From IMG/VR virus record IMGVR_UViG_3300035698_020457, positions 1 to 38,258 of that record: DNA of 38,258 nt. One strand, given 5' to 3'. The translations under genes and the position numbers were made by a program. Shown here piece after piece: positions 2,209-31,413 of the stretch. Below the pieces are notes generated by a model that was given only the letters and a program-made list of their open reading frames with translations, had not been told where the DNA came from and did no database searches. Within the stretch, counting starts at the first letter, position 1. The number at the start of each line of letters is the position of its first letter. Source of the DNA: a virus.

Positions 2209-2210
2209 TA

Positions 2211-2549: not shown

Positions 2550-2579
2550 CGTATTTCTCCTTTCAGTTAATGAAACAAA

Positions 2580-2963: not shown

Positions 2964-2974
2964 TTGATACCTCC

Positions 2975-3082: not shown

Positions 3083-3563
3083 TAGACACTCCTTTTAATT
3101 TTAGTATAGAATCAAATCCTTCTTCATGTGTTGGGTCTTTGTATATTTTATCGAAATGAATCCAAACTTCTTCCCAAAGTTTTTTATCTGGTTGACCATG
3201 TGGGTTTTTTATTCTTCTACTTACTGCTTCTTTCATATTTAAACGAGGAAGCACTACTGCTTCTACGCTATAACCAAATTCTTTTCCTACCTTAATATAT
3301 TTTTTTCTTAATTTCTTAGAAACTCCAACTTCATCTACTACAATATTGACTCCTAATTCAAGAAATTTTCTAAGCATATATTGTTCTGTCTTCCAAATTA
3401 TATATTCATAATCTCTATTAAAAACATATTGTCCATCTCCTATAGCATATCTTAATTGGTCTCTTACAATAGCGATATAGCCATCTTTTACATAGTCTTG
3501 AGCTATGGTTGATTTACCACAACCGATATTACCTACAAGCACTATGATGCGTTTTTTAGCCAT
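3060..3563 (-). CDS. Polynucleotide kinase-like P-loop kinase
   Basis: 167 residues with a Walker A motif GNIGCGKST at residues 11-19, a following VRDQLR segment like the substrate/acceptor loop of T4 Pnkp-type kinases, and VVDEVGVS corresponding to the second beta strand. The Arg-rich region near residue 118 may be the lid. The family phosphorylates 5'-OH ends of RNA or DNA. No HAD-type phosphatase domain is present, unlike T4 Pnkp, so 3'-end healing would need another enzyme. It overlaps the preceding metallophosphoesterase by 8 bases, and an RNA ligase lies 3 kb upstream in the same unit. A small-molecule kinase of the AAA_33 group is the alternative. Confidence 0.7.
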   Translation of the reverse strand: MAKKRIIVLVGNIGCGKSTIAQDYVKDGYIAIVRDQLRYAIGDGQYVFNRDYEYIIWKTEQYMLRKFLELGVNIVVDEVGVSKKLRKKYIKVGKEFGYSVEAVVLPRLNMKEAVSRRIKNPHGQPDKKLWEEVWIHFDKIYKDPTHEEGFDSILKLKGVSNDNKILP

Positions 3564-4188
3564 GTTTTTGTCCCTTTAACCATTTATTATATTTGTTTTT
3601 AATCTCATCATAAGTAATAGGATAGAAATTATGCATATCAACACCCACGTTAAACGCATCAGTGAAACTAAATCCTTGTTTAATTCTCTTACAAACCCAA
3701 GCATTATGAACATGCCCAACTAAATTAATTTCATAATTCATATCTGCTCTTGCAGGGTCATGAACCAAATTAATATAATGATTATCAATATTAAGCACTA
3801 AATTTTGAATTCGAGTCTTGCATGTGTTATTTCTATCATGATTTCCTTTAATAAAAATAATCTCTCCGTTTAATCTATCTCTCCAAGAAGTTGCTGTAAC
3901 ATTTATTCCTTCACCTCTATTTAATGAATTCTTAAAACAAAAATCTCCGATATGATATACCTTGTCGGTTTTTCCAACTCTTTCATTCCATCTCTTGATG
4001 ATACCTTCATCATGTCTGTATAAAGATTCTTTGCTTACTTTAAAAGAACGTTGTTCTTCTTCAGAAGCAGTAAGATAATGATTATATTTCTCTTTATCTT
4101 TATCTGTCATAAAAATAGTTCGACCGCAATATTTCATAATGTTAGCGTGTCCTAAATGTAAATCTGATGTGATATATGTATTATTCAT
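3556..4188 (-). CDS. Calcineurin-like metallophosphoesterase
   Basis: 210 residues with the metal-binding series of the family: ITSDLHLGH near the N-terminus, HIGDFCF, IKGNHDRN in the middle, and LVGHVHNAW near the C-terminus. Phage members of this small YfcE-like type are often annotated as phosphohydrolases of unknown substrate. It overlaps the kinase gene downstream by 8 bases and the SbcC-like gene upstream by 8, so it is co-translated with both. A role in RNA end healing with the kinase is possible but is inference. Confidence 0.8.
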   Translation of the reverse strand: MNNTYITSDLHLGHANIMKYCGRTIFMTDKDKEKYNHYLTASEEEQRSFKVSKESLYRHDEGIIKRWNERVGKTDKVYHIGDFCFKNSLNRGEGINVTATSWRDRLNGEIIFIKGNHDRNNTCKTRIQNLVLNIDNHYINLVHDPARADMNYEINLVGHVHNAWVCKRIKQGFSFTDAFNVGVDMHNFYPITYDEIKNKYNKWLKGQKHG

Positions 4189-5605
4189 TTAAATTAATTA
4201 CCTTTACTGATGATGGCATATCTGGTGCATTGTGTAGAACTAAGAATAACTGAAAAGGGTAACACTCAAAAATACTTACAACGTGCAGGAGATTATCTTC
4301 ATCAAGACTTCCTAATCCTTCATCTGCAACAATAATACCTGTTTTATTTTGAGATATTAATAATGATAACTTAAATGCTATCTGCATAAGTGTAGCTTGT
4401 CCTGTTGATAAATCTTTTTGTGTATATGTTATTCCATCTTTATTGTAGAGTATTGTAAACTTTCCTTTGTCATCTATTGTAAAGCTAACAGTAAATCCAA
4501 TTTTTTCAAGCACTGAATTAATAATTGGCTCAAGGACTTTGATACTTTCTTTTAAGTAATATGAAGATAAGTTATCTAACTCACTAAGAGCTTGTTTCAC
4601 TATAAGAACGTCTTTAGTGCTATATATAAGATTTTTCTGCTTCATACGAGCTTCTAAGCGAGTTTTAATACTGTTTAACGTGCTAATACGTGCTTGTATT
4701 TCTTCTTTATTAGTCTTATATGTCTGCATTATATCGTTTTGCATACCAAGAGATTCTATGTTCTTTTTAATTTGATTGTTCAATTGTATAACTTTATTAT
4801 TTATTTCGTCAAGCTGACGTTTTTGATTGTCTTGAGAAATAGCTTGTTTACAAGCATAGCATGTTTTTGGCGCTGAAAGTATTTTATTTTTCTGAGAAGT
4901 ATAATTAGTTTTCTGTCCTTCAGCATTACCTTTTTCTCTTTGTTCTATACGATACTCTTTTTCAAATTCGTTTAATTCTTTAACAACGTCTCTATATTGT
5001 TCTGTAACATCTGATATACCTTTATTTAAAATAGCTAATCTCTTGTCGCTTGGATGATGAGTATAAACTGTCATACCATCTTTATTTAATCTTTCACGTT
5101 CTGATTTGATAGTCTGAAGTTTAGTCTTGGCATTATTGAATATCTCCTGCGTAAGAGTGAACAATGTTTTTTTGATTGTTGAGGGTCCAGCACTCAAAAT
5201 ATCTGACTCTGGAGAGTAAGCATCTATAATTCTAAATTTAACAAAATTATCTCTTGAGTCGAATAAATTCACAATATAATTATTAGCTTCTATAGAAGTA
5301 GCAAATTTTAACTTTTCTCCATCCTTTATTATTTCTACAGAAGTAGGATAACTTCTTTTAATAATATAGATGCTTTTCTCATGACTAATTTTTAATTCTA
5401 CTCTACAATTCTTACATTCTTTATTTACAAGACTCGCTAAAGAAGAATAAGAATAGCCATATAATGCAAATAATATAGCAAATAACGATATAGTAGATTT
5501 GCCTGTTCCATTTCTTCCAGAAATAAAATTCAACTTCGAAAAATCGTATTCATGATTTCCTTTGAAATTTCTAAAGTTATATAATTTAATCTTTAATAGT
5601 TTCAA
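4181..5605 (-). CDS. Recombination endonuclease subunit, gp46/SbcC/Rad50-like
   Basis: 474 residues. Walker A is GRNGTGKS at 30-37, a coiled coil runs about 160-330 and is broken by a zinc hook CYAC at 249-252. The ABC signature is LSTGQ at 399-403 and Walker B with catalytic Glu is VADEG near 426-430. This is the short phage gp46 form. With the nuclease subunit gp47/SbcD it resects DNA ends for recombination-dependent replication. The likely partner is at 8300-9034, separated from it by an HNH gene, a phosphatase and an RNA ligase. It overlaps the HNH gene by 20 bases. Confidence 0.9.
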   Translation of the reverse strand: MKLLKIKLYNFRNFKGNHEYDFSKLNFISGRNGTGKSTISLFAILFALYGYSYSSLASLVNKECKNCRVELKISHEKSIYIIKRSYPTSVEIIKDGEKLKFATSIEANNYIVNLFDSRDNFVKFRIIDAYSPESDILSAGPSTIKKTLFTLTQEIFNNAKTKLQTIKSERERLNKDGMTVYTHHPSDKRLAILNKGISDVTEQYRDVVKELNEFEKEYRIEQREKGNAEGQKTNYTSQKNKILSAPKTCYACKQAISQDNQKRQLDEINNKVIQLNNQIKKNIESLGMQNDIMQTYKTNKEEIQARISTLNSIKTRLEARMKQKNLIYSTKDVLIVKQALSELDNLSSYYLKESIKVLEPIINSVLEKIGFTVSFTIDDKGKFTILYNKDGITYTQKDLSTGQATLMQIAFKLSLLISQNKTGIIVADEGLGSLDEDNLLHVVSIFECYPFQLFLVLHNAPDMPSSVKVINLNE

Positions 5606-11973: not shown

Positions 11974-12159
11974 TCATATCTCCTTTTGTATTTGTCTTTT
12001 AATTTTAGCTCTATTATACTTTCTTTTTTTAGGTTTAACGCTTGTTTTTTTGTGAAAAGTGATTCTTATTTTATAGATTAGTCCACGACATATAGAGCAT
12101 ATCTCGCAATTGCCTATTATTTTTGGTTGTGGGTTTTTGCATTTACATTTTTTCAGCAT
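11974..12159 (-). CDS. Small zinc-ribbon protein, 61 aa
   Basis: Cysteines occur as CKCK near the start and CEICSIC after about 14 residues, enough for one zinc site, then a strongly basic C-terminus. The ATG at 12157-12159 has AAGGAG at a seven-base spacing, better than the ATG six bases earlier. It overlaps the end of the polymerase gene. Confidence 0.5.
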   Translation of the reverse strand: MLKKCKCKNPQPKIIGNCEICSICRGLIYKIRITFHKKTSVKPKKRKYNRAKIKRQIQKEI

Positions 12160-15100
12160 TATCATTCTCCTTAATGAGATAAACTGTATTTGGTCTTGGT
12201 AATTCTTTCATAACTTTAAATAAACTGTCATCTATTATTTCATCTATGCTTTTTCCCTTAGAGAATAATTTTACTATTTGGCCCTTGTAACGATTTAATA
12301 TATTCTTAGCTATACATTTAACTTCTTCTTGCTGTTCTGCATTTAGAGTCTCAAATACTTTTTGATTATATTTTGCACTTGATAATAGTGATATGTTATA
12401 TCCATATTTTTCTAATTTAGAAATCTTCTCAGTTCTTTTAATATCGCCTTCTGTATCTACTCTTGTCATACCCGCCCTTTCAAAGAATGGGTTATAATTC
12501 GCCATAACTGCTACAGTTTCTATATATTTAGTATCTGCAAATCTTTCAAAATATTCGCCTATCATATAATAAGACAAACCGATACCTCTATATTTTGGTA
12601 ACAAGACTACTCTTGAAATACAAGAAAAGTCTTTATTAATCTGTGTGCATATTTCTTTGCTCATTTTAGAATATTTTTTATCAGTGTATATGTTTCTTCC
12701 TTTAAGAGCAAGATGAGGATATGTTATTACTATGACTCCTATTACATCATCTTCATAAGTCATTTTATAAATATTCTTAACTGCTCCCAATTTTGCTTGT
12801 CTGTAATGAAACTTAGATAACTTCTTATAATCTTCCTTTGTTCCTAATTCTACTTTGACTTTATCATGAATAGATAGTCTTTTAGGATAATCTGTTATTT
12901 CATGTCTTTCTACTGTAACATCTGATTCATATCCTTTTTTGATGAATACACTTGGTTTTAAAGCGTCTTTTAAGTCAGTGTGAGTTGTTGCGACTACTAC
13001 CATTTTATTAAGCTTACGTGCTATTTTCTGTAGATTAAACGATACTATTTTAGCAGTTGTTCTATCAAGAGTTGCACAAAACTCATCAAGAATCCAGACT
13101 CTTTTATCTGCATCAATGAACTTGGCTATTCTATATCTATATTTTTGACCATCTGACAACTGTTTATATTTTCTTAAATATAAGAAAGCATCTCCTAATC
13201 CAGCTGTGTTTAACTTTTTCAAAGCATCATTTAAATCTTTGCCGACTCCTTCTATTAATATCTCTTCATCATCAATCTTTAAATCATTAAACGAAATAGA
13301 ATCTTTCATCTTAGAAAAGACATTATTTACTATCCAGCTCTTACCTGAGCCACTATCTCCTGTTATATATATAATATCATTAGATTTTATTTTAAGCTTG
13401 AAATTGTCATATATTGTAAATTCTTTTGTCTCATCTATACCTAAACCAAATGCTTCAGCAATCATGATTGTTCTATCTGTTATTCCTGAATCGGTCTTGA
13501 ATGAATGAGATACATTAATCTCATCATCTTCAATATAATTTTGACAAATTTCTGCTGTGATTGGCTTTGATTCTTTTAAATTTAATTCTAACTGATTTTC
13601 TTTAATAGTTACTTCAGGTTTTTTCTTTTTGTTAGAAGTTGCTTCTTTCGCTTTTTCTTTTTTTACATATTCAGCTATCTCATCTACAGGTTTAGTTGTC
13701 TGATTTACAGGTGCCATTTCTGTATCTTTTGATTCTACTTTAGGCGGATACATGATTGACTGTTTCATCTTACTTGCTCTTACTTTTCTCAAATCCCAAT
13801 CCATAGCTTCGAAAATCGTATCTAACTTCATCAGAATATTCCTCTCTTTTATCCTATCCCAATCAATATCTTTTATAGTATCTATAGTTTTCTTATCAAA
13901 TGCCATGACATCTTTTGCTTTACCTTTTACTTCTATTTTTTCTGTTGTTATTCGTCCTTTTTCTTCTAAATGATTAATTAATTCTTCTTTCTTTTCTTGA
14001 GTCATATCTTTAACTAAAATTTCTTCTCCAAAGTATTCTTTCCATGAATCTTTTAATTTCCCCGCTGTTAATTTTTTACCATCTATAAACTCTACTGATT
14101 CTGTTTTCATTTCATATTCTGTTGGATTTACATATATATAATTAAAACCTTCTCCAACCTTTTTAGTCAAATTAGCATTCTTTAATGCTCTTACGAAAAT
14201 AGGAACATTCTTATAATTTTCAATAGGTCTTCCTAATTTACAAGGAAATGCTACCTCTTCTAATGAAGCTTTTTCGATAATTTCTAATTGAGCTTTTATC
14301 CATTCAAAGATTTCATTTTTATCTACTTCATTCATTATCTTTTTAATGAGTTCTTTCTGAAATTTTTTCTGAAAAATAGTAGAATCTTTTCGTTTGGCCT
14401 CTATGCCTTTCATTTCTTCTTTCATCTCTCCGTTCGGTTTTTTAAGGTCTCCTACATATCTGCATAAAGTCAGAAGCAATAGTTTCTTAAAAATCCCTTG
14501 ATATTCGAACTCAATACTGACATCTTCTTTTCCAAAAGTCTCTTTTCCCCATTGCTTAATTAAATCATTTAAAATTACTGTTAGATTTTCTTCACTCTTA
14601 ATAAATACACTATCTGTATCTATATATATAATTTCATGTCCAAGAGCTTCTACTTTATCTTTAACATAATGCAGTAGCGACCGGACTATAAAGGTCGTAG
14701 CTGAAGCTACTCTTTTATCATACATTCTGAAAAAACGATTACCAAACACGCCATATGCACTATTAACAATAGATTTTATTGCACTATACATTTGTTCTAC
14801 ATTTTCATAATCAGAATCGTTTTCTGACATTGTTGACATCTTCTTCTTAATATTATTTTTTAAAGATAACAACTTATCAACAACTGTAGGCAATATAGCA
14901 TTTTTGGTTTGTTTGAAATGTATATTATTTACTTCTATCGAATCTTGTTCTTTAGTCAATGTAATATTTGCAGAATCGAGACAAAAGTCTTTTATTGCAG
15001 TCGGGTATGCAGAAGTCAAATCATAGACTCCTATATTTTTAAATAGTCCAGTCTTAAATGCTTCTCTATAAGCGCCTTCAAAATCTTCTTTCTCTGTAAG

Positions 15101-16072
15101 AGTTCCTCTCTCTTCTGAGGGTTTCATAGGAAGAACTACATTTTGTTTTTTTGCTTCTTGTAATAATAGCATATCTATAATGCGAGAAGTCCAAATCATA
15201 TCTTCCCATTCTACTTTACTTAATCTTCTTATTTCATCAAAATAAGGTATAAGATTTTTCTGTTCTTCTAATCTTACAAGTTGTTCTACATCAAGTTTAT
15301 TTTTTGCTTTTAAATCTTCTGATAGAACATCAAAAGGAATTTCTTTTTTTGGAGCATCTCCTAAGTATTTCTGAGAGATGTCATCTAATTTATAAGATTT
15401 TTCTCTATTCTGAGTTATCTGTTTAAACCAAGAATAATAATCAACTATAGATATACCTGCTGGATATGGACAATCTCTTCCATAACGAGTTTCATTTATC
15501 GGACTGATTCGTTCTGAGAAATCAGGAAATCGATTCGCTAAATAAGGCATATCGAAGTTAGTCATATTCCAACCTAATAACAAGTCAAACTTCTCTTTTC
15601 GTATATATTCTATAAAAGCGTCCATCATCTTATATTCGGATTCATAATCTTTCATATAGAAAGTATGATATTCTTTACTGAAATTATTATAAATTGTAAC
15701 GCACGATATAGGATATTTAGCTTCTAATACATCTGGTAGTTCTGTTGCTAATACTTCAATATCAAGCATTGCCCATTTTATAGGAGTTTTCTCTAATGAA
15801 TCTACTTTATCTATTAGATACCTTTTACAAAACAATACATCAGCTTCCCAAGCATCAGAGGTTCGTTTTGCTCTTACCTCTTTAGGGTCTGAGACTATAA
15901 TCTTCTTTACAAATTCTCCTGTAACACTTTTAAGCGAGCCGAAGGCCTCTTTTGCAGTCTCGTAATAATAAGGATAAAAAGATTTTTCCTTAATAACAAT
16001 TTGCTTTCCAGAAGCGTCTCTTGTAAATAGAGTTATATTTCTACCTTTGTTATGAATATTTATTAATCTCAT
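12143..16072 (-). CDS. Family B DNA polymerase fused to ABC ATPase and GNAT acetyltransferase domains
   Basis: A single 1309-residue frame. The 3'-5' exonuclease has LDIEVL (Asp/Glu near 104/106), LLGWNMTNFD (near 165-174) and NKLDVEQL (Asp near 261). The polymerase has motif A YDLTSAYP near 350-357, motif B KSIVNSAYG near 433-441 and motif C YIDTDS near 483-488. After a charged linker (about 770-840) comes an ABC-type ATPase: Walker A GDSGSGKS (905-912), signature LSDGQ (972-976), Walker B WILDEF (993-998), H-loop His near 1031. Then a GNAT domain with RVVLLPKYRGIGLSYYMI near 1154-1171 and NPFFERAGM near 1194. The C-terminal pair matches the architecture of COG2401, an ABC ATPase joined to a predicted acetyltransferase. 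I know of no polymerase carrying it. ATG at 16070-16072 with GGAG upstream is preferred to the TTG one codon earlier. Confidence 0.93.
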   Translation of the reverse strand: MRLINIHNKGRNITLFTRDASGKQIVIKEKSFYPYYYETAKEAFGSLKSVTGEFVKKIIVSDPKEVRAKRTSDAWEADVLFCKRYLIDKVDSLEKTPIKWAMLDIEVLATELPDVLEAKYPISCVTIYNNFSKEYHTFYMKDYESEYKMMDAFIEYIRKEKFDLLLGWNMTNFDMPYLANRFPDFSERISPINETRYGRDCPYPAGISIVDYYSWFKQITQNREKSYKLDDISQKYLGDAPKKEIPFDVLSEDLKAKNKLDVEQLVRLEEQKNLIPYFDEIRRLSKVEWEDMIWTSRIIDMLLLQEAKKQNVVLPMKPSEERGTLTEKEDFEGAYREAFKTGLFKNIGVYDLTSAYPTAIKDFCLDSANITLTKEQDSIEVNNIHFKQTKNAILPTVVDKLLSLKNNIKKKMSTMSENDSDYENVEQMYSAIKSIVNSAYGVFGNRFFRMYDKRVASATTFIVRSLLHYVKDKVEALGHEIIYIDTDSVFIKSEENLTVILNDLIKQWGKETFGKEDVSIEFEYQGIFKKLLLLTLCRYVGDLKKPNGEMKEEMKGIEAKRKDSTIFQKKFQKELIKKIMNEVDKNEIFEWIKAQLEIIEKASLEEVAFPCKLGRPIENYKNVPIFVRALKNANLTKKVGEGFNYIYVNPTEYEMKTESVEFIDGKKLTAGKLKDSWKEYFGEEILVKDMTQEKKEELINHLEEKGRITTEKIEVKGKAKDVMAFDKKTIDTIKDIDWDRIKERNILMKLDTIFEAMDWDLRKVRASKMKQSIMYPPKVESKDTEMAPVNQTTKPVDEIAEYVKKEKAKEATSNKKKKPEVTIKENQLELNLKESKPITAEICQNYIEDDEINVSHSFKTDSGITDRTIMIAEAFGLGIDETKEFTIYDNFKLKIKSNDIIYITGDSGSGKSWIVNNVFSKMKDSISFNDLKIDDEEILIEGVGKDLNDALKKLNTAGLGDAFLYLRKYKQLSDGQKYRYRIAKFIDADKRVWILDEFCATLDRTTAKIVSFNLQKIARKLNKMVVVATTHTDLKDALKPSVFIKKGYESDVTVERHEITDYPKRLSIHDKVKVELGTKEDYKKLSKFHYRQAKLGAVKNIYKMTYEDDVIGVIVITYPHLALKGRNIYTDKKYSKMSKEICTQINKDFSCISRVVLLPKYRGIGLSYYMIGEYFERFADTKYIETVAVMANYNPFFERAGMTRVDTEGDIKRTEKISKLEKYGYNISLLSSAKYNQKVFETLNAEQQEEVKCIAKNILNRYKGQIVKLFSKGKSIDEIIDDSLFKVMKELPRPNTVYLIKENDNAEKM

Positions 16073-16182
16073 CAAACAACTCCATGTTTTTTATACTTAC
16101 CATTCCCTTTTTTAGCAAGACGTTTGTTTCTTTTCTTTCTGTTCTTTCTTCTTAATGCTCTTAATCTTTTAAGATGTCTCAT
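16072..16182 (-). CDS. Very basic 36-aa peptide
   Basis: The frame from ATG 16180-16182 encodes MRHLKRLRALRRKNRKKRNK and further basic residues, over half Arg/Lys. Its TGA overlaps the polymerase ATG and its 3' end contains the GGAG used by the polymerase, so it may couple polymerase translation. The composition resembles nucleic-acid-binding or ribosomal-tail peptides. Confidence 0.5.
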   Translation of the reverse strand: MRHLKRLRALRRKNRKKRNKRLAKKGNGKYKKHGVV

Positions 16183-18219: not shown

Positions 18220-18438
18220 TTAGAACCATATGCTATTTTTTAAAGTCTGTTCAAGCGTATTGATAGATTTCACAGTTTGAATAACGTTATTGCTCATTTT
18301 ATCAATAGTGCTTCTCATCATCTTCATTTCTTTTCCTGCATAAATCAAGACTACAATTATAATTAAATTCAAAATCATCATAACTATTCTTTGAAATATT
18401 TTAAATATTTCTATTTTCTTATTCACTTTATATATCAT
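18220..18438 (-). CDS. Small membrane protein, 72 aa
   Basis: A basic N-terminus (NKKIEIFKIFQR), a transmembrane helix around residues 19-34 (IVMMILNLIIIVVLIYAG), then a helical tail (MMRSTIDKMSNNVIQTV) that could form a coiled coil. No family recognised. Confidence 0.55.
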   Translation of the reverse strand: MIYKVNKKIEIFKIFQRIVMMILNLIIIVVLIYAGKEMKMMRSTIDKMSNNVIQTVKSINTLEQTLKNSIWF

Positions 18439-22562: not shown

Positions 22563-23639
22563 CTATTTTTCAAGTATTCCGTTTAATCTTCTATCACATA
22601 AAAATTCAGTCAACAATCTTGCTCCGTTTTTTAAATCTTTCATATTGATTATTTCAACAGGAGAATGCATATTTCTTAAAGGAATGCCTAAATCTACTAT
22701 CTTAATTCCACCATATAAATTAGCAACTGACTTAGCATTTGTTCCACCGGCATCTGAAGTAGCTAAATATTGAACTTGAATTTTTTTATTTTTAGCAACA
22801 TAACCTAACAAGTCAACTGATTTACGATGAATATTAATACCTTTATATATAGCTAAACCTTTCTCAAGAAGACATCTTCCTGTTCTTCTCTCATCTACAT
22901 CTGATTGGTCTGTTGCAAATGTAACGTCAACTCCTACAAATAAATCTGGCTTAAATCTATAAGCCATCTCTTTAGCGCCTTTACACCCAACTTCTTCTTG
23001 TGAAGTAAATACAAATTTAAGAGTTGGTAATGACTTTAAACGTTTACGCATAATAGTTTTTATTGTTTCAATTAAAATAAAACACCCAGCTTTATCATCA
23101 AATCCTGAACCTGTATAATATCCATCTATTAATCTATCAAATTCTGGACTTAAAACAACAGGGTCTCCTATTGAAATCAAAGATGCTACTTGTTTTCTTT
23201 TTCTAATTCCGACATCTAAAGTTACGTCTGATGTTCTATTTGGCAATTCATCTGTTTCATCATCAATCAAATGAATAGGTTTAGTTCCTATTACTCCTTT
23301 TATAACTTTATTATGAGAAGTCAAAATCGACACTTTTCTGCCTCTTAATAGAGAAGTATCATGACCTCCAATAGCAATTAAACTAATATACCCACCTTTA
23401 TCAATATTATTCACTAAAAATCCAAGTTGGTCTTGATGAGCGTCTATTACAACTACTTTATCAGTCTTGCCTTTGATAGTAGCAATAACATTATTATGAA
23501 AATCAATTTCAACTCTTGTCCGAGGTAAGTATTTGAGTAGTTCTATTTTGATATATTCTGATAGTGGTCTTTCGAATCCACTGGGCGAAGGAATATCTAC
23601 TAAATCTTTTAATAGTTTAGTTTCTTTATTATATGACAT
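22563..23639 (-). CDS. M42 family metalloaminopeptidase
   Basis: 358 residues from ATG 23637-23639, which has AAGGAG upstream. A longer frame to 23696 would run through the promoter and is rejected. Family residues: PSPSGFERP at the N-terminus, IDAHQDQLGF (zinc His and the next Asp), GSGFDDKAG (bridging Asp), FTSQEEVGCKGA (Glu pair), VGVDVTFATD and a C-terminal NMHSPVE (zinc His). M42 enzymes form large dodecameric peptide-trimming shells (TET, glutamyl aminopeptidase, deblocking aminopeptidase). It is the first gene after promoter P2. A complete M42 peptidase is unusual in a phage and may complement the proteases encoded upstream. Confidence 0.92.
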   Translation of the reverse strand: MSYNKETKLLKDLVDIPSPSGFERPLSEYIKIELLKYLPRTRVEIDFHNNVIATIKGKTDKVVVIDAHQDQLGFLVNNIDKGGYISLIAIGGHDTSLLRGRKVSILTSHNKVIKGVIGTKPIHLIDDETDELPNRTSDVTLDVGIRKRKQVASLISIGDPVVLSPEFDRLIDGYYTGSGFDDKAGCFILIETIKTIMRKRLKSLPTLKFVFTSQEEVGCKGAKEMAYRFKPDLFVGVDVTFATDQSDVDERRTGRCLLEKGLAIYKGINIHRKSVDLLGYVAKNKKIQVQYLATSDAGGTNAKSVANLYGGIKIVDLGIPLRNMHSPVEIINMKDLKNGARLLTEFLCDRRLNGILEK

Positions 23640-23666
23640 TTTTGACTCCTTTTTTTGTCTATTATC

Positions 23667-23709
23667 ATTATAACATAAGTTATATCTTACTGTCAAGTAA
23701 TACTGTCAA
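23667..23709 (-). promoter_or_regulatory. Promoter P2 with upstream TGACA element
   Basis: Minus strand: TTGACA at 23691-23696, 18-base spacer, TGTTATAAT with TATAAT at 23667-23672. A second TTGACA sits at 23704-23709, exactly 13 bases away. The stretch between matches the promoter at 37.5 kb over 18 bases. It drives the M42 gene and probably the whole replication unit down to 11.59 kb. Confidence 0.88.
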
Positions 23710-23751
23710 TTAATTAAAATAATTTAAGTTCTTATAGGTAAACAAGTTATA

Positions 23752-24285
23752 TCAATCCCACAATGAGAAGAAATACATTCTAAACAATTTCCACCCCTCA
23801 TCATATTCTCGTATTTCATGAGCTGACATACATCTATCATTGTTATCGTATTTTTTATTAAGTTTTTCAAGAGACTTATCCCATTTTACTCGTTTCTTTT
23901 TATTTCTAATCAAAAACACCTCATTTATACTCATTTTTTTAGCAAGATAAAAAGTATAAGAAATTTTATTTAAAATATCAACCCATTGACCTTCTGTTAA
24001 TTGGCCAGAGCCACCATCTCCATCTTTCTTTAATTTTCTAACTCCGTGTTCGATAACATCTGACAAGTAATAAGCAAAACCCCAAACATCAGAATCGGCA
24101 TACCCTTTTTTTCCTCTCTGTATAAATGATTTTATATTTAAAGGAATCATATCAATATAACGTATTACGCTATAATAAGAATCTCGTATGAAATATAAAA
24201 TTGGATGACGTTTTCTTCTTTTTCTTTCTCTTTTAAAACTTCTCATGAGTGTTTTATGTGAAAGAAGTTTGTATTTTTTCTTCAT
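23752..24285 (-). CDS. Conserved phage protein of unknown function, 177 aa
   Basis: ATG 24283-24285 with AAAGGAG upstream is preferred; the frame extends further but overlaps the membrane gene upstream. The N-terminus is very basic (SFKRERKRRKRHPILYFI). Residues 50-110 include KGYADSDVWGFAYYLSDVIE, a pattern seen in a family of uncharacterised proteins from many phages. No enzymatic motif. It is the last gene of the long operon, before promoter P2. Confidence 0.65.
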   Translation of the reverse strand: MKKKYKLLSHKTLMRSFKRERKRRKRHPILYFIRDSYYSVIRYIDMIPLNIKSFIQRGKKGYADSDVWGFAYYLSDVIEHGVRKLKKDGDGGSGQLTEGQWVDILNKISYTFYLAKKMSINEVFLIRNKKKRVKWDKSLEKLNKKYDNNDRCMSAHEIREYDEGWKLFRMYFFSLWD

Positions 24286-24521
24286 TTTATATTCTCCTTT
24301 TGAGTCTTTCGCCAGTTTATAATACCATAAACATTCATAGCAAGTAGATATACAGAAATAGCAACTATACTTGATGACTTGAATAACACACCCAGCCAAA
24401 TATATATTCCATTTGCTATACCAAAATATGCGAACCCAGAAACTTTTTTTCTTGCTATAAGAAAGGAACCCAAAATAAATCCAATATTAGCTACCCAACC
24501 TAAAATATCTGTTAATTGCAT
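24282..24521 (-). CDS. Small PnuC-like membrane protein
   Basis: 79 residues with three hydrophobic segments and a C-terminal AMNVYGIINWRKTQ, which resembles the end of PnuC-type nicotinamide riboside transporters, where a conserved N-x-Y-G-x-x-x-W motif occurs. The protein is about a third of the usual PnuC length, like the half-size transporters of the SemiSWEET type. It might work as an oligomer; transport and substrate are inference. Confidence 0.55.
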   Translation of the reverse strand: MQLTDILGWVANIGFILGSFLIARKKVSGFAYFGIANGIYIWLGVLFKSSSIVAISVYLLAMNVYGIINWRKTQKENIK

Positions 24522-24530
24522 GATAGTCTC

Positions 24531-24986
24531 CTATTTCTTATCTTTCAGATTCTTTGGCAAAATGCTCATTACATTAAAATCAGTAATTTTAAATCCAAAT
24601 TTTCTATAATAACTTTTCTTGCCTTTAGCCGATGTTAAAAAGATAGACATAAATCCATCTTTTTTACAATACTCTAAAGTAGCTTTCATTAATCTTCCTC
24701 CTATACCTTGACCTTGAAAAGAAGGAATAACCATTACTTCGCTTATATAATATTCATAAGTAGAATCTCCTTTTATTCTGACTATACCTATTAATTTATT
24801 ATCTTCTTGCCTACGAGCAGTAATATAAGTAGAATGCTTCATAGCATTTATCTCTTTATCTTTATTTCTTACCTTGTAGTAAAATATTTTAGCAGAATCA
24901 TATTTGTCTGAATTATTCATTTCTTTGAATAATATTTTTAATTCTTCATATACAATTTTTTCATCATTAACTATAATTTTAATCAT
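24531..24986 (-). CDS. GNAT family N-acetyltransferase
   Basis: 151 residues from ATG 24984-24986. A TTG two codons earlier has better spacing to the AAAGGAG, so it may be the real start. Motif A is SEVMVIPSFQGQGIGGRLMK with the Q-x-x-G-x-G/A acetyl-CoA loop, and the C-terminal GKKSYYRKFGFK matches the usual YxxxGF end. It acetylates an amine on a small molecule or protein. It overlaps the transporter gene by one base and is next to the amidoligase gene. Confidence 0.85.
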   Translation of the reverse strand: MIKIIVNDEKIVYEELKILFKEMNNSDKYDSAKIFYYKVRNKDKEINAMKHSTYITARRQEDNKLIGIVRIKGDSTYEYYISEVMVIPSFQGQGIGGRLMKATLEYCKKDGFMSIFLTSAKGKKSYYRKFGFKITDFNVMSILPKNLKDKK

Positions 24987-26203
24987 TAACAATCACTCTC
25001 CTTTAAATCTTCTATTCTTAGATGTGGTATAAGTAATAAACACATCAGAGTTGCCACGCTTGAAATAATCACATTAGCATTATAACCGAATTTATCAAAT
25101 ATCACACCTCCAAAGAAATTACCGCCTCTGGCACAGAAATTAGAAACAGAAGTTACAAGTGCATAAAAGAATGCTTCGCTTCCTGAAGGAATAATTTTAA
25201 CAAAAAATGCTAATAAAGTCATAAAAGTAATACCCCCAAATGCACCAAAAGCAATATTATAAACTACTAATACCCATTGATTTGGCAAGTAGAGATAAAA
25301 TAGATTTGTTACTGCTGAAAATATTACCATAAAATATAATAGTTTTTTCATTGGAAATCGATAAGCCCATTTATAATAAATAAAGTAACCTATTACACCA
25401 AGAACAGTTCCCATCGCTCCCAAGTATCCTAAGAAGAGTTTATCAACTTGCAATACTTCTCTGCATCTTATCATTAAAGCTGTCCCGAACGAAGGACAGA
25501 ACTGTAAACAAGCTACAAATAGAAGTCCTATAAGCAGGCGTTTGTTTTTTATTTTTTTAATATTGCTCTTTAAGGTCTCTAAAACTTTTATCTTATTTTT
25601 CTTACGACTCTTATGCTCTTTAAATTTAGTTATTATATAAAACAACATAAACAAAGGTATAATCCCAGCTAAAAGATAAGCTACTCTGTAATTGATGTGT
25701 TCTGGTAAATACTTAGCTATAAACGCTCCCAATAGAGCTACAACAAGACCTGCAATACCTAAACTTGACCATTGAAGAGATTGTAAACGTCCTTTTAAAT
25801 TTAGTTTCTTTTCTGTAATTACCATCTCTCTATCAACTGATACATCTGCAAAAGCAATACCAATATTGATTATTATGCCAGTTATTATTAACGCTAATAA
25901 ATTTAGACCAAATACAATTATATATAAATAACTCAATAATATTAAAGCACAACTACCAATTAAATAATAAGTAGTTCTCTTTCCTTTGATAGATACATTA
26001 TCTACAAAATAACCGAATACAATCTTGAAATACCATGCTACTCCTACAATCCAACTAATTAGACCTAACATAGTAGCTGATAAACCCCAAGATTCACGTG
26101 TAAGATAGTATATACATTGACTTGGCAGACCGCTAATTCCCTGATTAGCATATTGCAAGATGCAAAGTAGTGCTACTATAAATGGTATTTTTTTATTATG
26201 CAT
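24986..26203 (-). CDS. BT1-like (folate-biopterin) or MFS transporter
   Basis: 405 residues with about 12 hydrophobic spans. The N-terminal LLCILQYANQGISGLPSQC, then a WYFKIVFGYFVDNVSIKGKR segment, fit the first part of BT1 family transporters, in which a K/P-x-x-G-x-x-D sequence precedes the loop. A second-half motif FCARGGNFFGGVIFDKFGY fits too. The central loop is basic. It is in one unit with a GNAT enzyme and an amidoligase. A full-size transporter is rare in phages. MFS membership is clear; the BT1 assignment is tentative. Confidence 0.75.
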   Translation of the reverse strand: MHNKKIPFIVALLCILQYANQGISGLPSQCIYYLTRESWGLSATMLGLISWIVGVAWYFKIVFGYFVDNVSIKGKRTTYYLIGSCALILLSYLYIIVFGLNLLALIITGIIINIGIAFADVSVDREMVITEKKLNLKGRLQSLQWSSLGIAGLVVALLGAFIAKYLPEHINYRVAYLLAGIIPLFMLFYIITKFKEHKSRKKNKIKVLETLKSNIKKIKNKRLLIGLLFVACLQFCPSFGTALMIRCREVLQVDKLFLGYLGAMGTVLGVIGYFIYYKWAYRFPMKKLLYFMVIFSAVTNLFYLYLPNQWVLVVYNIAFGAFGGITFMTLLAFFVKIIPSGSEAFFYALVTSVSNFCARGGNFFGGVIFDKFGYNANVIISSVATLMCLLLIPHLRIEDLKESDC

Positions 26204-26832: not shown

Positions 26833-27480
26833 TTATATAAAGAATCTCTTTTTTATTGCATTATGCTCTTTATCTATAATAGCAATAGCTTCATCTATAT
26901 CATCAGTTACTTTAAATAAATTTAAATCTTTTTGACTAATCTTTTTTTGTTCTTTGAGATAATTCATCCAATCTAATAATCCCTTATAATATTCACTTCC
27001 GAATAATATAAACGGTCTTGGTGGAATCTTTTCATTTTGTAATATAGCTAATTGGTCAAATATTTCATCAACAGTTCCATATCCGCCTGGCATGGCTATT
27101 GAAGCAAATGAATACTTAGCAAACATTACTTTTCTGGTATAAAAATGTTTAAAACAAATATAATTATTTATATAATCATTTTTATCTTGAAATTCAGGAA
27201 GTTCTATATTTAGTCCTACTGAAACTCCTTCAGCTTCATAAGCGCCTTTATTACAAGCTTCCATAATTCCTCTGCCTGCGCCTGTTATAATGCTATAATT
27301 TTTCTTAGCTAATTTATATGATAAATCATAAGCATGTTTGTAATATTTATCTTTTGAATCTGTTCTTGCAGAACCGAAAATAACTACGCCTTTTTTTATC
27401 TGACTCAAACAACTAAATCCTCTACCAAATTCGTCTCTTATTTTATTAAGTCTTCTTCTATCGCTTTTCTTCAATACCAT
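26833..27480 (-). CDS. LOG family protein (nucleoside monophosphate phosphoribohydrolase-like)
   Basis: 215 residues from ATG 27478-27480, with AAAGG eight bases upstream. Earlier in-frame ATGs lack a ribosome site and lie inside another reading frame. Motifs: VVIFGSARTD, IITGAGRGIMEACNKGA (nucleotide-binding), and MPGGYGTVDEIFDQL, the GGxGTxxE signature. The family cleaves AMP-like nucleotides at the N-glycosidic bond and is often mis-annotated as lysine decarboxylase. In a phage it could release free base for modification or degrade nucleotides. Confidence 0.85.
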   Translation of the reverse strand: MVLKKSDRRRLNKIRDEFGRGFSCLSQIKKGVVIFGSARTDSKDKYYKHAYDLSYKLAKKNYSIITGAGRGIMEACNKGAYEAEGVSVGLNIELPEFQDKNDYINNYICFKHFYTRKVMFAKYSFASIAMPGGYGTVDEIFDQLAILQNEKIPPRPFILFGSEYYKGLLDWMNYLKEQKKISQKDLNLFKVTDDIDEAIAIIDKEHNAIKKRFFI

Positions 27481-27607
27481 CACCACACCTTTCATCATAT
27501 AATCTTTGAAACGCTGTAGCATATACACTACAAGCTCCATTTATATATTCAAGAAGAGAATCTATAGCTCTTAAATAATAAGAATTATAATGTTTTTTGT
27601 ATAACAT
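27458..27607 (-). CDS. Small protein, 49 aa, hidden in overlap
   Basis: A frame from ATG 27605-27607 to TAG 27458-27460 encodes MLYKKHYNSYYLRAIDSLLE and a further INGACSVYATAFQRLYDERC stretch. It overlaps the end of the ImmA-like gene and the start of LOG, filling exactly the gap. GAGG lies 11 bases upstream. Aromatic, helical; function unknown. Confidence 0.5.
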   Translation of the reverse strand: MLYKKHYNSYYLRAIDSLLEYINGACSVYATAFQRLYDERCGDGIEEKR

Positions 27608-27914
27608 CTAAAGCAAAATCCTCTGCTTGATATTCTTTTTCTACTAAAGTCAAATAATGATTAGTTGTTAAATGCTTCTTTCTTATATGACCTAATTCAT
27701 GAGCTATTGCAATTAGATTATCTGATTTATTTTTAAATCTTTTAAGATTGTAAGTCAACATATAACATTCTTCTTTCATGCCATCTGTATATGTGTATAA
27801 ATTAACGGAAGCTCCTCTTATTCTATTATCTTTTTTACAAAAGATGTCTTCTTTGAAATGAAGAAGAGATTTCATTTCTTTTAAAATATCTTCAAATAAT
27901 TTTTGATTAATCAT
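27585..27914 (-). CDS. ImmA/IrrE-type zinc metallopeptidase
   Basis: 109 residues with IAIAHELGHIRKKHL, the HExxH zinc motif, and a downstream KEYQAEDFALDV, where a Glu serves as the third zinc ligand as in ImmA/IrrE peptidases. The N-terminal region is short and there is no HTH domain. Such peptidases cleave phage or host repressors (ImmA-ImmR, IrrE-DdrO). No repressor partner is seen next to it. A target in the host is possible; this is inference. Confidence 0.8.
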   Translation of the reverse strand: MINQKLFEDILKEMKSLLHFKEDIFCKKDNRIRGASVNLYTYTDGMKEECYMLTYNLKRFKNKSDNLIAIAHELGHIRKKHLTTNHYLTLVEKEYQAEDFALDVIQKTL

Positions 27915-28089: not shown

Positions 28090-28776
28090 TTATCTGGATA
28101 ATATAAAGTAAGCAATAATGGCTCCTTGAGCTAACATAAGAAACCAAAACCCAATCTTATTAACTTTATTATTAAAATTTTCGAAATCTTTCTTTTTCTT
28201 AAATAATTTTTCAAACCACGCCAGCCAAATAAGCCCACCGTCAAGACATGGTAATGGTAATATGTTAGTTACTAAACAAAATAGATTAATAAAACTTATT
28301 TGAAGCAACCAAACGTTAATTTTGTAATGCTCTAATAGATATATCAAAGACATATAGTCTCTTGTAAATAAAATCTTCATAAAAGTAAAATCTATTTTTA
28401 ATCCTGTTATGATTGATTTATACATTATCAAATAGCATATACAAGCTAAAAGAAAGTTCATAGTAACTCCCGCTAATAATATAGCTACTTTTTTAGACCA
28501 TCTTTGAGCTAAATATCCCTTCTTTTTCTTTATACTTGTCTCTCCATATAAAGAAGTATATCCACCAAGTAACCATGGTGTGATTTGCCAAGTTATACCT
28601 TTCCATTTTCTTTTCCAAATAACAGGTTTACCAAACCCAATGCAAAAAGTTTCTACTGGCACTTTGCACCATAAAGCAACAAGCAGATGTCCTAATTCAT
28701 GAACCATTATAGATAACATAATTACAAACCAAAAATAAATATATTCTAAACCTATAAATAATGCTATTTTATTCAT
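28090..28776 (-). CDS. Site-2 protease-like M50 intramembrane metalloprotease
   Basis: 228 residues from ATG 28774-28776, six bases after GGAG and overlapping the deformylase TGA. HELGH at 26-30 in the first transmembrane helix, GGYTSLYGE near 71-79, and NILPLPCLDGG at 171-181 (the NxxPxPxLDGG motif, with Asp as metal ligand) are all present. Four or five membrane spans are visible and no PDZ domain fits in the length. M50 enzymes cut transmembrane anchors of regulators such as anti-sigma factors. The gene lies in one unit with an anchored trypsin-like protease and ClpP. Very unusual for a phage. Confidence 0.9.
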   Translation of the reverse strand: MNKIALFIGLEYIYFWFVIMLSIMVHELGHLLVALWCKVPVETFCIGFGKPVIWKRKWKGITWQITPWLLGGYTSLYGETSIKKKKGYLAQRWSKKVAILLAGVTMNFLLACICYLIMYKSIITGLKIDFTFMKILFTRDYMSLIYLLEHYKINVWLLQISFINLFCLVTNILPLPCLDGGLIWLAWFEKLFKKKKDFENFNNKVNKIGFWFLMLAQGAIIAYFILSR

Positions 28777-29210
28777 CGTTTTCTCCATTTCGAATCTAAA
28801 ATTAATCTACCGTTCATATGGTCAATCTCATGCTGTATTGCTATTGTAACAATTCCATCTATTTCCAATAAATCAAAGAAATATTTTATACTGTCATTAT
28901 CAAGAACAATTTCTTTATAGCGTAGAGTGTCAAGATGAATGCCGGGCAAGCTTAAACAACCTTCAGATTTCATACGGAATTTGTCAAATTTTTCTAATAT
29001 AATTGGATTAATCAGATTTACTTTTGTCTCTCCATATCTAATAATCCCAACTCTTTTAGGAATACCAATTTGAATAGCTGATAATCCTATTCCTTTTTCT
29101 ATATCTAAACTATCTTCTAAATCTTTAATAATGTCTTGAGCTTCAGCAAAAGAACAGATTTCGCTTTTTTTTCTAAGCTCTTTTATATTAGTTACGATTT
29201 TTCTTTTCAT
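28773..29210 (-). CDS. def: Peptide deformylase
   Basis: 145 residues with motif I GIGLSAIQIG at 40-49, motif II EGCLSLPG at 83-90 with the metal Cys, and motif III QHEIDHMNG at 126-134. It removes formyl groups from the N-termini of nascent proteins. Phage-encoded deformylases are known from marine phages and probably speed maturation of new proteins. The N-terminal conserved Asn/Arg helix is shorter than in bacterial Def. It overlaps the S2P gene by four bases. Confidence 0.92.
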   Translation of the reverse strand: MKRKIVTNIKELRKKSEICSFAEAQDIIKDLEDSLDIEKGIGLSAIQIGIPKRVGIIRYGETKVNLINPIILEKFDKFRMKSEGCLSLPGIHLDTLRYKEIVLDNDSIKYFFDLLEIDGIVTIAIQHEIDHMNGRLILDSKWRKR

Positions 29211-29313
29211 AATAATTAAACTTTATGCATTTATCACATTTCTTATTACGATTAATACAATCTGCTTTCATACAAAAATTAATTCTATAATTGCTTTTTG
29301 ATTTATAACTCAT
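29188..29313 (-). CDS. Cys-rich small protein, 41 aa
   Basis: The frame from ATG 29311-29313 has CMKADC and CDKC spaced to bind one zinc, in a basic background. It overlaps the deformylase start by 23 bases and ends the gap after the Fic gene (1 base apart). Function unknown. Confidence 0.5.
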   Translation of the reverse strand: MSYKSKSNYRINFCMKADCINRNKKCDKCIKFNYYEKKNRN

Positions 29314-29775
29314 TTAATATTGCTTTCTTTGTGTAGCATTTAAAGTTTGATAATAATACATTTGTAAAAATGAAATTTTAAATGTATAACCCTCCTCGAC
29401 TGCTTTAGATAACCATATCAATCTTCCCACTCTGCCATTTAAATCTTGAAATGGATGTATTCTTTCAAATTCGTTATGTGCTACAAAAGAATCCATATTT
29501 TCAAAATTACTCATATATCTTTTCATTAAACGAGGAATTTCTTGATGATGAGGTGGCACGTGGTTACCAACATATACTTGACAAGTTCTCCATTTACCAA
29601 CCCAATTTTTATTTAAATATTTTCCAAGTAAAGAATGTATAGTTAATAAATCACTAATATCTTCTATTCCTAATAAAACATACTCAATAGCTTTCATATC
29701 ATCGGGATTAAGTCTATTTTCTCCTTCTATTTTATTACTTTTAAGCATAAAAGATTTGAGTTTTTTTCTATTCAT
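29314..29775 (-). CDS. Fic domain protein with N-terminal inhibitory motif
   Basis: 153 residues. The Fic signature is HPFQDLNGRVGR at about 107-118; the classical DGN is DLN, so the second glycine position is Leu. The catalytic His and the metal Asp/Arg remain. Near the N-terminus SNKIEGE (13-19) matches the [S/T]xxxE[G/N] inhibitory motif, and Glu17 would block ATP placement until relieved. Fic enzymes transfer AMP or other nucleotides to protein hydroxyls. The small size resembles stand-alone class III-type proteins, although the inhibitory motif is N-terminal. Confidence 0.88.
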   Translation of the reverse strand: MNRKKLKSFMLKSNKIEGENRLNPDDMKAIEYVLLGIEDISDLLTIHSLLGKYLNKNWVGKWRTCQVYVGNHVPPHHQEIPRLMKRYMSNFENMDSFVAHNEFERIHPFQDLNGRVGRLIWLSKAVEEGYTFKISFLQMYYYQTLNATQRKQY

Positions 29776-29912
29776 CTTTTGTTATTCTCGCCTTCTCTCT
29801 CAGCCATCATATATTTTTTTATTTTTCTAAAATATTTTATAACATCCATCATCTCTTTATTCAATCTTAATTTTCTGTAAAACTGTCCATTTGCTCTGTT
29901 AGAACGACTCAT
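29772..29912 (-). CDS. Small basic protein, 46 aa
   Basis: The frame from ATG 29910-29912 to a TGA overlapping the Fic ATG encodes MSRSNRANGQFYRKLRLNKE and a helical basic continuation. Position and overlaps at both ends support it. Possible antitoxin-like partner of the Fic protein, but nothing in the sequence shows this. Confidence 0.5.
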   Translation of the reverse strand: MSRSNRANGQFYRKLRLNKEMMDVIKYFRKIKKYMMAEREGENNKR

Positions 29913-30793
29913 AGTAACGCCTCTTTCAAGAACTTTTGAATTTCATTTAAACTCACAGCTCTACCATAATTCTGAGTAATAATTCCAAAAGGATTTAGAT
30001 TACTTAATGGAATAAGCTGACTTAAAACTCCAACTATTTTTCCTTTATACAGCAAAGCGCCTCCACTATTACCAAAATATACTTTATTAGTTATTATAAA
30101 ATATCCAACGTTATCTATCTTAGTTACAATTCCATCTGTTATCATATCTACCATACCTGAGGGATTACCAATTACTAAAACTTCACTTCCTTGTTTAGGA
30201 GATACTTCAGATATTTCAAGATAAGCTGTATGTTTTAGTTGAGAAACTTTCAGCAATGCTAAATCTTTTTCTGTATTAAAGCTTACTATTTCTGCTTTGA
30301 CTGATGTTCCAGAATCAGATACTATATATAGAAGATTGTCTTCTTGAGTGGTATCTATTAAATGTGCTACTGTAAGAACATAATCTTCTCCATCTATCTT
30401 GATGTGAGTTCCAGCACCGAGACACCCAACAGTTACATTTCGAATTAATACATTCGCTTCTTTTATCTTATCTACATTTTCTAAATCTATAGATTTTTTA
30501 GAATTAATCTTTTTTTCTAATTGTTTTTGATATTGTTTCATAACAATAACTTCTGTTTCAACTTTTTCACCTCGATTATCTATATTGACAATACTTCTCA
30601 TAACAATTAAAACTAAATCTTCTATTTCTTGAATTCTTTCTTCTTGATATTGAGCAAGTATGTCTATTTTATTTTCTAGCATTATAATAAATCCTACTTG
30701 ATTGTAATTAATATAAGATAAACTACCTAATGCAATCATATTAACTGCAAGAAGTAGAATCAATATTATTCTACCAACTTTACAATTCTTCAT
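29909..30793 (-). CDS. Membrane-anchored trypsin-like serine protease (DegS-like without PDZ)
   Basis: 294 residues from ATG 30791-30793, which has AAAGGAG upstream. Residues 8-30 form one membrane anchor; a coiled segment runs about 35-110. The protease domain has TVAHL (His 144), EKDLALLK (Asp 177) and YFGNSGGALL (Ser 243), the full triad in the S1C/HtrA order. No PDZ domain follows. Anchoring and the adjacent site-2 protease and ClpP genes recall the DegS-RseP-ClpXP cascade. The predicted protease domain would be outside the membrane. Confidence 0.88.
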   Translation of the reverse strand: MKNCKVGRIILILLLAVNMIALGSLSYINYNQVGFIIMLENKIDILAQYQEERIQEIEDLVLIVMRSIVNIDNRGEKVETEVIVMKQYQKQLEKKINSKKSIDLENVDKIKEANVLIRNVTVGCLGAGTHIKIDGEDYVLTVAHLIDTTQEDNLLYIVSDSGTSVKAEIVSFNTEKDLALLKVSQLKHTAYLEISEVSPKQGSEVLVIGNPSGMVDMITDGIVTKIDNVGYFIITNKVYFGNSGGALLYKGKIVGVLSQLIPLSNLNPFGIITQNYGRAVSLNEIQKFLKEALL

Positions 30794-30810
30794 AATTAAC
30801 TCCTTTCTCA

Positions 30811-31413
30811 TTACAGAATCTCCTCTATAATGCCTTTCTTTTTACATTCTTCTGAGTATAACCATAACTCTCCATGTCTTGATTTCTCTAACTCTTCTTC
30901 TGTTAGTTTAGTTCTTTCTCTAAACATTTTCATGACTTTTGTTTGTAATATTTCACTATTTTGAAATCTGTCTTTTACTTTAGTAACGTAATCAAAATTC
31001 ACACAAGCCATATCATGAGCCATCCAGACTGAATTTTGAGTCATATATCTCTGTGCGCCAAATATTGAGATTATTCCTCCCATAGAAGCGGCCATACCAT
31101 TTATTATAGTAATTACAGGAGATTGCATAGAAATCATACAATCAATAATAGCAAAACCATCGTATATTGAACCACCCGGTGAATTTATCCAAAGCACTAT
31201 AGGTTTACCAACATCATATGCATTTAAAGCAGTCATTGTAGTAACTACTTCATGTGCTTTTTCAGTATTTATTACTCCTGAAAGAAATATTTGTCTATTA
31301 TGCAATAAAATTTGGTCTATCTTTATCTCGTTTCTGTAAGATAGTTTTTTTATTTTTTTCACTATCTTTTTCTTCTTCTTTACTGGTTTTTTTATTATTT
31401 TTTTCTTAGTCAT
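30811..31413 (-). CDS. clpP: ClpP-like serine protease
   Basis: 200 residues with a lysine-rich N-terminal extension (about 25 residues), then the ClpP fold: VLWINSPGGSIYDGFAI, GMAASMGG (Ser 110) and WMAHD (His 133). The Asp position near 182 reads GELWLYSEE, where Glu takes the place usually held by Asp. No ClpX/ClpA ATPase is seen in the window, so it would use host unfoldase or work alone. Phage ClpPs usually act in prohead maturation, but no head genes are nearby. AGGAG precedes the start. Confidence 0.9.
   Translation of the reverse strand: MTKKKIIKKPVKKKKKIVKKIKKLSYRNEIKIDQILLHNRQIFLSGVINTEKAHEVVTTMTALNAYDVGKPIVLWINSPGGSIYDGFAIIDCMISMQSPVITIINGMAASMGGIISIFGAQRYMTQNSVWMAHDMACVNFDYVTKVKDRFQNSEILQTKVMKMFRERTKLTEEELEKSRHGELWLYSEECKKKGIIEEIL

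What the first reader, a model, noticed from the sequence alone, without database searches (positions are those of the whole stretch)
28090..31413. Phage-encoded regulated intramembrane proteolysis set: anchored trypsin-like protease, site-2 protease and ClpP
Seen: within 3.3 kb of one operon lie a membrane-anchored S1C protease (His144/Asp177/Ser243), an M50 protease (HELGH and NxxPxPxLDGG) and ClpP (Ser110/His133). Known: DegS, RseP and ClpXP carry out the three steps of bacterial anti-sigma factor destruction. Inference: the phage may carry its own version of the full cascade, to trigger or hijack a host envelope stress response, or to process a phage membrane regulator. Site-2 proteases are very rare in phages.
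Basis: partly seen in the sequence, partly recalled or inferred. Interest (0 to 1): 0.88.

Follow-up and report, generated by a model that had tools for sequence, protein, structure and literature searches.

The report
Phage stripped-down membrane and cytoplasmic proteases
A group of uncultured phages carries its own membrane-anchored serine protease, a minimal protease that cuts inside membranes, and a ClpP-like protease; both membrane enzymes lack the safety domains that make the bacterial versions act in sequence, so they are probably ungated tools for clearing membrane proteins rather than a copied bacterial stress-signalling cascade.

Summary
In detail: at 28090-31413 (minus strand) lie a trypsin-like S1C protease with one N-terminal membrane helix, an M50 site-2 protease (S2P) and ClpP. 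Nucleophiles and metal-binding motifs are intact. Peptide deformylase (PDF) and Fic lie between them.

Genome-level co-occurrence is real. Further low-GC viral lineages, with M50s 29-55% identical, carry S2P; all have S1C and all but one ClpP, against S1C in 1 of 18 comparison phages. But the tight cluster is clade-specific. In four distant records S1C lies about 20-27 kb from M50, whose constant neighbour is PDF. One close relative (G002) keeps ClpP, S1C and PDF and lacks M50.

Both membrane enzymes lack PDZ domains. M50 is an RseP core with the PDZ region removed: HExxH-to-LDG spacing is 121-202 residues in 13 phage S2Ps, against at least 265 in nearly all bacterial relatives. Published RseP mutants with disrupted PDZ domains cut RseA without site-1 cleavage, so this architecture argues against a DegS-RseP-ClpXP cascade. 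No sigma factor or Clp ATPase was found in the closest records.

Best reading: ungated membrane-protein clearance enzymes in a protease-rich phage lineage. Substrate unknown. New variant of a known kind.

The parts
30811..31413 (-). ClpP-like S14 protease, 200 aa, Lys-rich N-terminus, Ser110/His133/Glu182
   Evidence: PF00574 E 9e-35; best PDB matches are ClpP, E 3e-26; 60-65% identical in G001/G002
29909..30793 (-). Membrane-anchored S1C (HtrA/DegS-type) protease, 294 aa from Met7; one N-terminal membrane helix, helical linker, no PDZ
   Evidence: PF13365 E 9e-19; Foldseek to HtrA1, DegQ and PDZ-deleted DegS, E about 1e-9; triad, anchor and missing PDZ shared by 8 phage homologues
29772..29912 (-). 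46-aa ORF between S1C and Fic, overlapping both
   Evidence: read from the sequence
29314..29775 (-). Fic-domain protein, HPFQDLNGRVGR, possible SNKIEG inhibitory motif; window only
   Evidence: PF02661 E 2e-13; no homologue in G001/G002
28773..29210 (-). Peptide deformylase, 145 aa; constant upstream neighbour of M50
   Evidence: PF01327 E 2e-26; PDF precedes M50 in all 8 low-GC M50 records
28090..28776 (-). M50 site-2 protease, 228 aa from Met5, ATGA overlap with PDF; RseP-like core without PDZ
   Evidence: PF02163 E 3e-36; matches Aquifex RseP-type protease in two pieces, the PDZ region missing; HExxH-LDG spacing 152
27585..27914 (-). Small zinc metallopeptidase with HELGH, ImmA/IrrE-like by eye
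   Evidence: PF01435 at 20.0 bits, just under its cut-off; conserved in G001/G002
22563..23696 (-). M42 aminopeptidase, further member of the peptidase-rich region
   Evidence: PF05343 E 2e-72; 66-72% identical in G001/G002
24986..26203 (-). MFS/BT1 transporter, near PDF-M50 also in distant lineages
   Evidence: PF03092 E 1e-21; homologues in L152, L153, L154, L157
18220..18438 (-). 72-aa single-span membrane protein, candidate S2P substrate
   Evidence: homologues in G003, G004, G005, G009; none found in G001, G002 or the searched part of G006

Best explanation
These are several stripped-down proteases that a deep lineage of low-GC phages keeps for membrane and cytoplasmic protein turnover during infection. 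S1C is tethered by one helix and trims proteins on the outer face of the cytoplasmic membrane (topology inferred from the positive N-terminus). M50, a PDZ-free S2P core, cuts within the membrane without needing a site-1 cut; likely substrates are signal-peptide remnants, small single-span membrane proteins (a host toxin or regulator, or phage-made) or stubs left by other proteases. PDF, overlapping M50, removes formyl groups in the cytoplasm. ClpP degrades cytoplasmic peptides or proteins, probably with a host Clp ATPase. They may feed each other but are not a gated S1P-S2P-ClpXP relay. Shown: gene content, catalytic motifs, missing PDZ, PDF-M50 proximity, cross-lineage conservation. Inferred: activity, topology, substrates, benefit to the phage.
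For: Motifs intact and under purifying selection. No PDZ in either membrane enzyme: M50 matches Aquifex RseP at residues 17-125 and 156-214, skipping the intervening PDZ region; spacing 121-202 in 13 phage S2Ps against at least 265 in all but 2 of the bacterial relatives with a recognisable LDG; S1C ends soon after its protease domain in 8 homologues. RseP with disrupted PDZ cuts RseA without site-1 cleavage, and PDZ-less SpoIVFB works without an S1P (PMC10202637). E. coli RseP degrades remnant signal peptides and small membrane proteins including the toxin HokB (PMC10470546). PDF lies just upstream of M50 in all low-GC lineages. Further peptidases nearby: M42, ImmA-like, and by eye M16 (L152), M17 (L157) and M14-like next to S1C. 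ClpP sits with replication or accessory genes, not with the terminase.
Against: No substrate is known and no activity is shown. Genome-level co-occurrence of S1C and M50 (5 of 5 lineages against 1 of 18 comparison phages) could reflect stepwise action after all; the lineages are related, so this test is not phylogenetically independent. From memory, not checked here: Hizukuri and Akiyama 2012 reported that the PDZ domains are not strictly needed for sequential RseA cleavage. The M50 structure model is too poor (pLDDT 44) to confirm topology.
Confidence: 0.45

Rival explanations
1. One reading: S1C makes the site-1 cut, M50 the intramembrane cut and ClpP with host ClpX finishes a host anti-sigma factor or a phage membrane regulator.
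For: All three types present and linked in the window and G001; genome-level co-occurrence across lineages; S1C fold matches PDZ-deleted DegS.
Against: No PDZ in either enzyme; G002 keeps S1C and ClpP without M50; S1C about 20-27 kb from M50 in G004-G006 and G009; G004 lacks ClpP; M50 overlaps PDF; no sigma factor or Clp ATPase over cut-off found. In Bacillus the listed site-1 proteases are PrsW or signal peptidases, not HtrA (PMC10202637); the host here is unknown.
Confidence: 0.15
2. Counter-defence: M50 (with or without S1C) removes small membrane toxins or membrane-anchored defence effectors that the host uses to abort infection.
For: RseP neutralises the small membrane toxin HokB by cleavage (PMC10470546); the PDZ-free form suits short substrates; M50 is present or absent among close relatives, as accessory genes are.
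Against: No direct evidence; conservation across lineages with PDF suggests a general need; host and its defences unknown.
Confidence: 0.2
3. Protein and peptide scavenging: the enzymes plus exopeptidases and the MFS transporter recycle host protein to amino acids.
For: Clustering of PDF, M50, ClpP, M42 and an MFS transporter, with other exopeptidase types in distant relatives.
Against: Transporter substrate unknown; a membrane-tethered HtrA domain and an S2P are poor bulk degraders.
Confidence: 0.12
4. ClpP is simply the phage's head maturation protease and its proximity to S1C and M50 is accidental.
For: Its best PHROG is phrog_94, head maturation protease, E 8.5e-33.
Against: In G001 it lies about 33 kb from the putative terminase, on the other strand, among replication genes; PDB sequence matches are cellular ClpP. 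The 785-807-aa protein downstream of the portal candidate resembles a prohead protease only by eye; searches did not confirm it.
Confidence: 0.1

Closest known systems
RseP / group I site-2 protease (E. coli RseP, Aquifex aq_1964)
   Same: HExxH in helix 1, GGY beta region, NxxPxPxLDG in the later core helix; best solved-structure relatives
   Different: No PDZ domains; 121-152 residues between the motifs in the low-GC phages; encoded after PDF, not in the dxr/uppS/cdsA-rseP neighbourhood of bacteria (seen in E. barkeri)
PDZ-less S2Ps (SpoIVFB group III; groups II and IV)
   Same: No PDZ; SpoIVFB needs no site-1 cut (PMC10202637)
   Different: No CBS domain by Pfam; nearest by sequence to RseP-type proteins. 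Groups II and IV were not compared here.
DegS / HtrA (S1C)
   Same: One N-terminal membrane helix, trypsin-like domain, His-Asp-Ser
   Different: No PDZ domain; linker of variable length between anchor and protease
ClpP (S14) and phage ClpP-type head proteases
   Same: Family profile, Ser and His
   Different: Glu at the acid position in all but one of the phage copies aligned; Lys-rich N-terminus; no Clp ATPase over cut-off in the closest records

Membership tests
M50 site-2 protease family | HExxH and LDG motifs in hydrophobic segments, family profile match | tested here: met
Group I (RseP-type) S2P | PDZ domain(s) between the second and third core helices | tested here: not met
   the PDZ region is missing; kinship by sequence only
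S1C / HtrA protease | Trypsin-like fold with His-Asp-Ser | tested here: met
   triad by alignment only
DegS-type site-1 protease | N-terminal membrane anchor | tested here: met
   (hydrophobicity)
DegS-type site-1 protease | C-terminal PDZ sensor domain | tested here: not met
   all 8 homologues end soon after the catalytic Ser; no PDZ match
DegS-RseP-ClpXP cascade | The three genes always kept together | tested here: not met
   G002 lacks M50 with an intact PDF-to-zinc-finger junction; no ClpP found in G004; records are fragments
DegS-RseP-ClpXP cascade | Anti-sigma / sigma substrate pair | tested here: inconclusive
   no Sigma70_r2 in G000-G002; a host pair could be the target; anti-sigma factors not searched
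DegS-RseP-ClpXP cascade | Sequential cleavage of one substrate | not testable with these tools
   needs biochemistry
ClpP peptidase (S14) | Ser-His-Asp triad | tested here: inconclusive
   Ser110 and His133 met; acid position is Glu182
Phage head maturation protease | Encoded in the terminase-portal-capsid module | tested here: not met
   the terminase match itself is weak, E 2.7e-4

The most novel reading that the evidence does not exclude
Phages of at least one deep lineage have turned the site-2 protease into a constitutively open intramembrane degrader (all PDZ gating removed) that, with a tethered PDZ-free HtrA protease, forms a viral membrane-clearance system, possibly against membrane toxins or defence effectors.
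Probability: 0.25. Interest if true: 0.78.

Novelty: new variant of a known kind. Interest (0 to 1): 0.55.

Why it matters
I know of no characterised phage-encoded site-2 protease; a 2023 review of bacterial S2Ps does not mention phages and the literature searches made here found none (open-access papers only). Viral S2Ps that uniformly lack PDZ domains are natural examples of an ungated intramembrane protease, at 200-230 aa convenient for biochemistry, and would make the role of PDZ gating directly testable. They also raise the question of which membrane proteins a phage needs to destroy.

Tried and rejected
AlphaFold of M50 (two rows, pLDDT 44, pTM 0.29) is unusable and was not searched; the S1C model was usable only for its protease domain. 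GenBank phage hits to M50 and S1C come mostly from unverified or bacterial-looking records: discarded. Independent PDZ losses in the two phage M50 groups are not claimed, since one phage clade is not rejected (AU p 0.73 for the two groups, 0.42 with G018). The head-protease reading of the 785-807-aa protein was suspected by eye and not confirmed. The promoter scan found no more than chance. Searching papers for the IMG sample numbers, to learn habitat or host, found nothing. A single-protein scan for S1C found no relative; the two-row alignment did.

Full report
What is there. The window is a whole IMG/VR virus record of 38,258 bases, a linear fragment, 27-33% G+C, with nearly all genes on the minus strand, among them PolB, RecA, RuvC and Prim-Pol. 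At 28090-31413 the order of transcription is ClpP, S1C, a 46-aa ORF, Fic, a 41-aa ORF, PDF and M50, with overlaps of stop and start codons at several joints. M50 most likely starts at Met5 and shares ATGA with the end of PDF. In ClpP the acid position is Glu182.

Relatives. Close relatives are G001 (70,058 bases, L002) and G002 (69,856 bases, L010), found through M50, S1C, LOG and the 5'-3' exonuclease. The block is syntenic: exonuclease, g178, ClpP, S1C, PDF, M50, zinc finger, ImmA-like, LOG, MFS, PnuC-like, M42. In G002 a homing endonuclease sits between ClpP and S1C, and M50 is missing: PDF is followed directly by the zinc-finger gene, and neither the protein nor the Pfam profile finds M50 anywhere in the 70-kb record. 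Fic, amidoligase and GNAT are in the window but not in these two.

Wider search. An alignment that spans the M50 motifs found 16 further IMG/VR loci. Six low-GC records are remote kin of the window's phage: G003 (55% M50 identity), G004, G005, G006, G009 and G010 (29-35%). In all of them PDF precedes M50: directly in G004, G005 and G006, with an HNH-like gene between in G009/G010 and two genes between in G003. ClpP lies in all but G004; in G003 it is a divergent copy at another place. S1C lies in all but the 49-kb fragment G010: close to PDF-M50 in G003, but about 20-27 kb away in G004, G005, G006 and G009, beside exonuclease/g218-type genes and an M14-like gene. The simplest account is that two ancestral neighbourhoods, S1C with the exonuclease genes and PDF with M50, lie side by side only in the clade of the window, G001, G002 and G003. 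A second group (G007, G008, G011-G017, 41-44% G+C in the fetched stretches) has M50 without PDF, often with ClpP, and with S1C only in G011. G018 (61% G+C) has M50 alone.

Is the co-occurrence more than chance? S1C is found in 7 of 8 low-GC M50 records, or 5 of 5 lineages, against 1 of 18 comparison phages that carry the LOG gene (Fisher p about 1e-4 to 2e-4). This is a real association, but the lineages share ancestry, so common descent of a core gene set explains it without any joint pathway.

Architecture of the S2P. The profile of the window and G001 M50s matches Aquifex RseP (9j82) at residues 17-125 and 156-214, which correspond to 4-112 and 352-409 there; the 239 residues in between, which hold the PDZ region, have shrunk to about 30. 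HExxH to LDG measures 152, 152 and 151 residues in G000, G001 and G003, 121-122 in G004, G005, G006 and G009, and 187-202 in the others; bacterial RseP relatives with a recognisable LDG have 265 or more, apart from two at 190-192. The bacterial set was picked by likeness to the PDZ-free query, so it is not biased towards PDZ carriers. The tree gives two well-supported phage groups (SH-aLRT 99 and 97); a single phage clade is not rejected.

Architecture of S1C. Eight phage homologues all have an N-terminal membrane helix, a linker of variable length and a protease domain with His, Asp and Ser, and end soon after the Ser, so none has a PDZ domain. The protease domain of the model matches HtrA1, DegQ and PDZ-deleted DegS, although overall model confidence is low (52.6).

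Meaning. In E. coli the order of cleavage depends on PDZ domains: that of DegS senses misfolded porins and those of RseP exclude uncut RseA; disrupting the RseP PDZ lets it cut RseA without DegS (PMC10202637; PMC7728848). A phage pair that lacks both is therefore unlikely to be a faithful copy of that relay. RseP also destroys leftover signal peptides and small membrane proteins, among them the toxin HokB (PMC10470546); small membrane proteins need no site-1 cut, and a minimal S2P fits them. The overlap of M50 with PDF, the many other peptidases and the MFS transporter make a protein-turnover setting more likely than a signalling setting. No sigma factor and no Clp ATPase over the cut-off was found in the three closest records, with the caution that they are fragments.

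A candidate substrate. A 65-72-aa single-span membrane protein is shared by the window (18220-18438), G003, G004, G005 and G009, upstream of PDF-M50 in G004 and G005; it was not found in G001 (which has M50), G002 (which lacks it) or the searched part of G006. This is a lead, not evidence.

Verdict. Observation confirmed; interpretation partly supported. The finding is a lineage of phage-encoded, PDZ-free site-2 proteases that co-occur with a tethered PDZ-free HtrA-type protease, PDF and ClpP.

Noticed in passing
window 29314-29775: Fic-domain protein with HPFQDLNGRVGR and a possible N-terminal inhibitory motif SNKIEG, absent from both close relatives.
   Followed up: partly
L002 13207-13668; L151 12971-13438: MgtC-family membrane protein in G001 (PF02308, E 6.5e-30) and, by eye, in G003: unusual in a phage.
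   Followed up: no
window 26833-27540; L014-L055: LOG/SLOG protein (PF03641) shared at 35-45% identity with 42 other viral contigs, many of which also carry a distant ClpP a few kb away.
   Followed up: no
window 12143-16075: 1310-aa family B DNA polymerase ORF with an ABC-ATPase-like C-terminal region; the relatives' copies are 763 and 1087 aa. Fusion, insertion or intein not examined.
   Followed up: no
L002 2830-4680; G002 23138-24925 (reverse complement): The exonuclease in G001 and an integrase-like protein in G002 appear interrupted by intein-like sequence (by eye).
   Followed up: no
L167-L170: An M14-like (AstE-type) gene lies beside S1C in four distant relatives, and amidoligase-like genes lie nearby in two (by eye).
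   Followed up: no
window 18220-18438: 72-aa single-span membrane protein ending in WF, with homologues in four other M50-bearing phages.
   Followed up: partly
G002 1919-4276 (reverse complement); G001 502-2925: 785-807-aa protein after the portal candidate may fuse a prohead protease with a scaffold; profile searches did not confirm this.
   Followed up: partly
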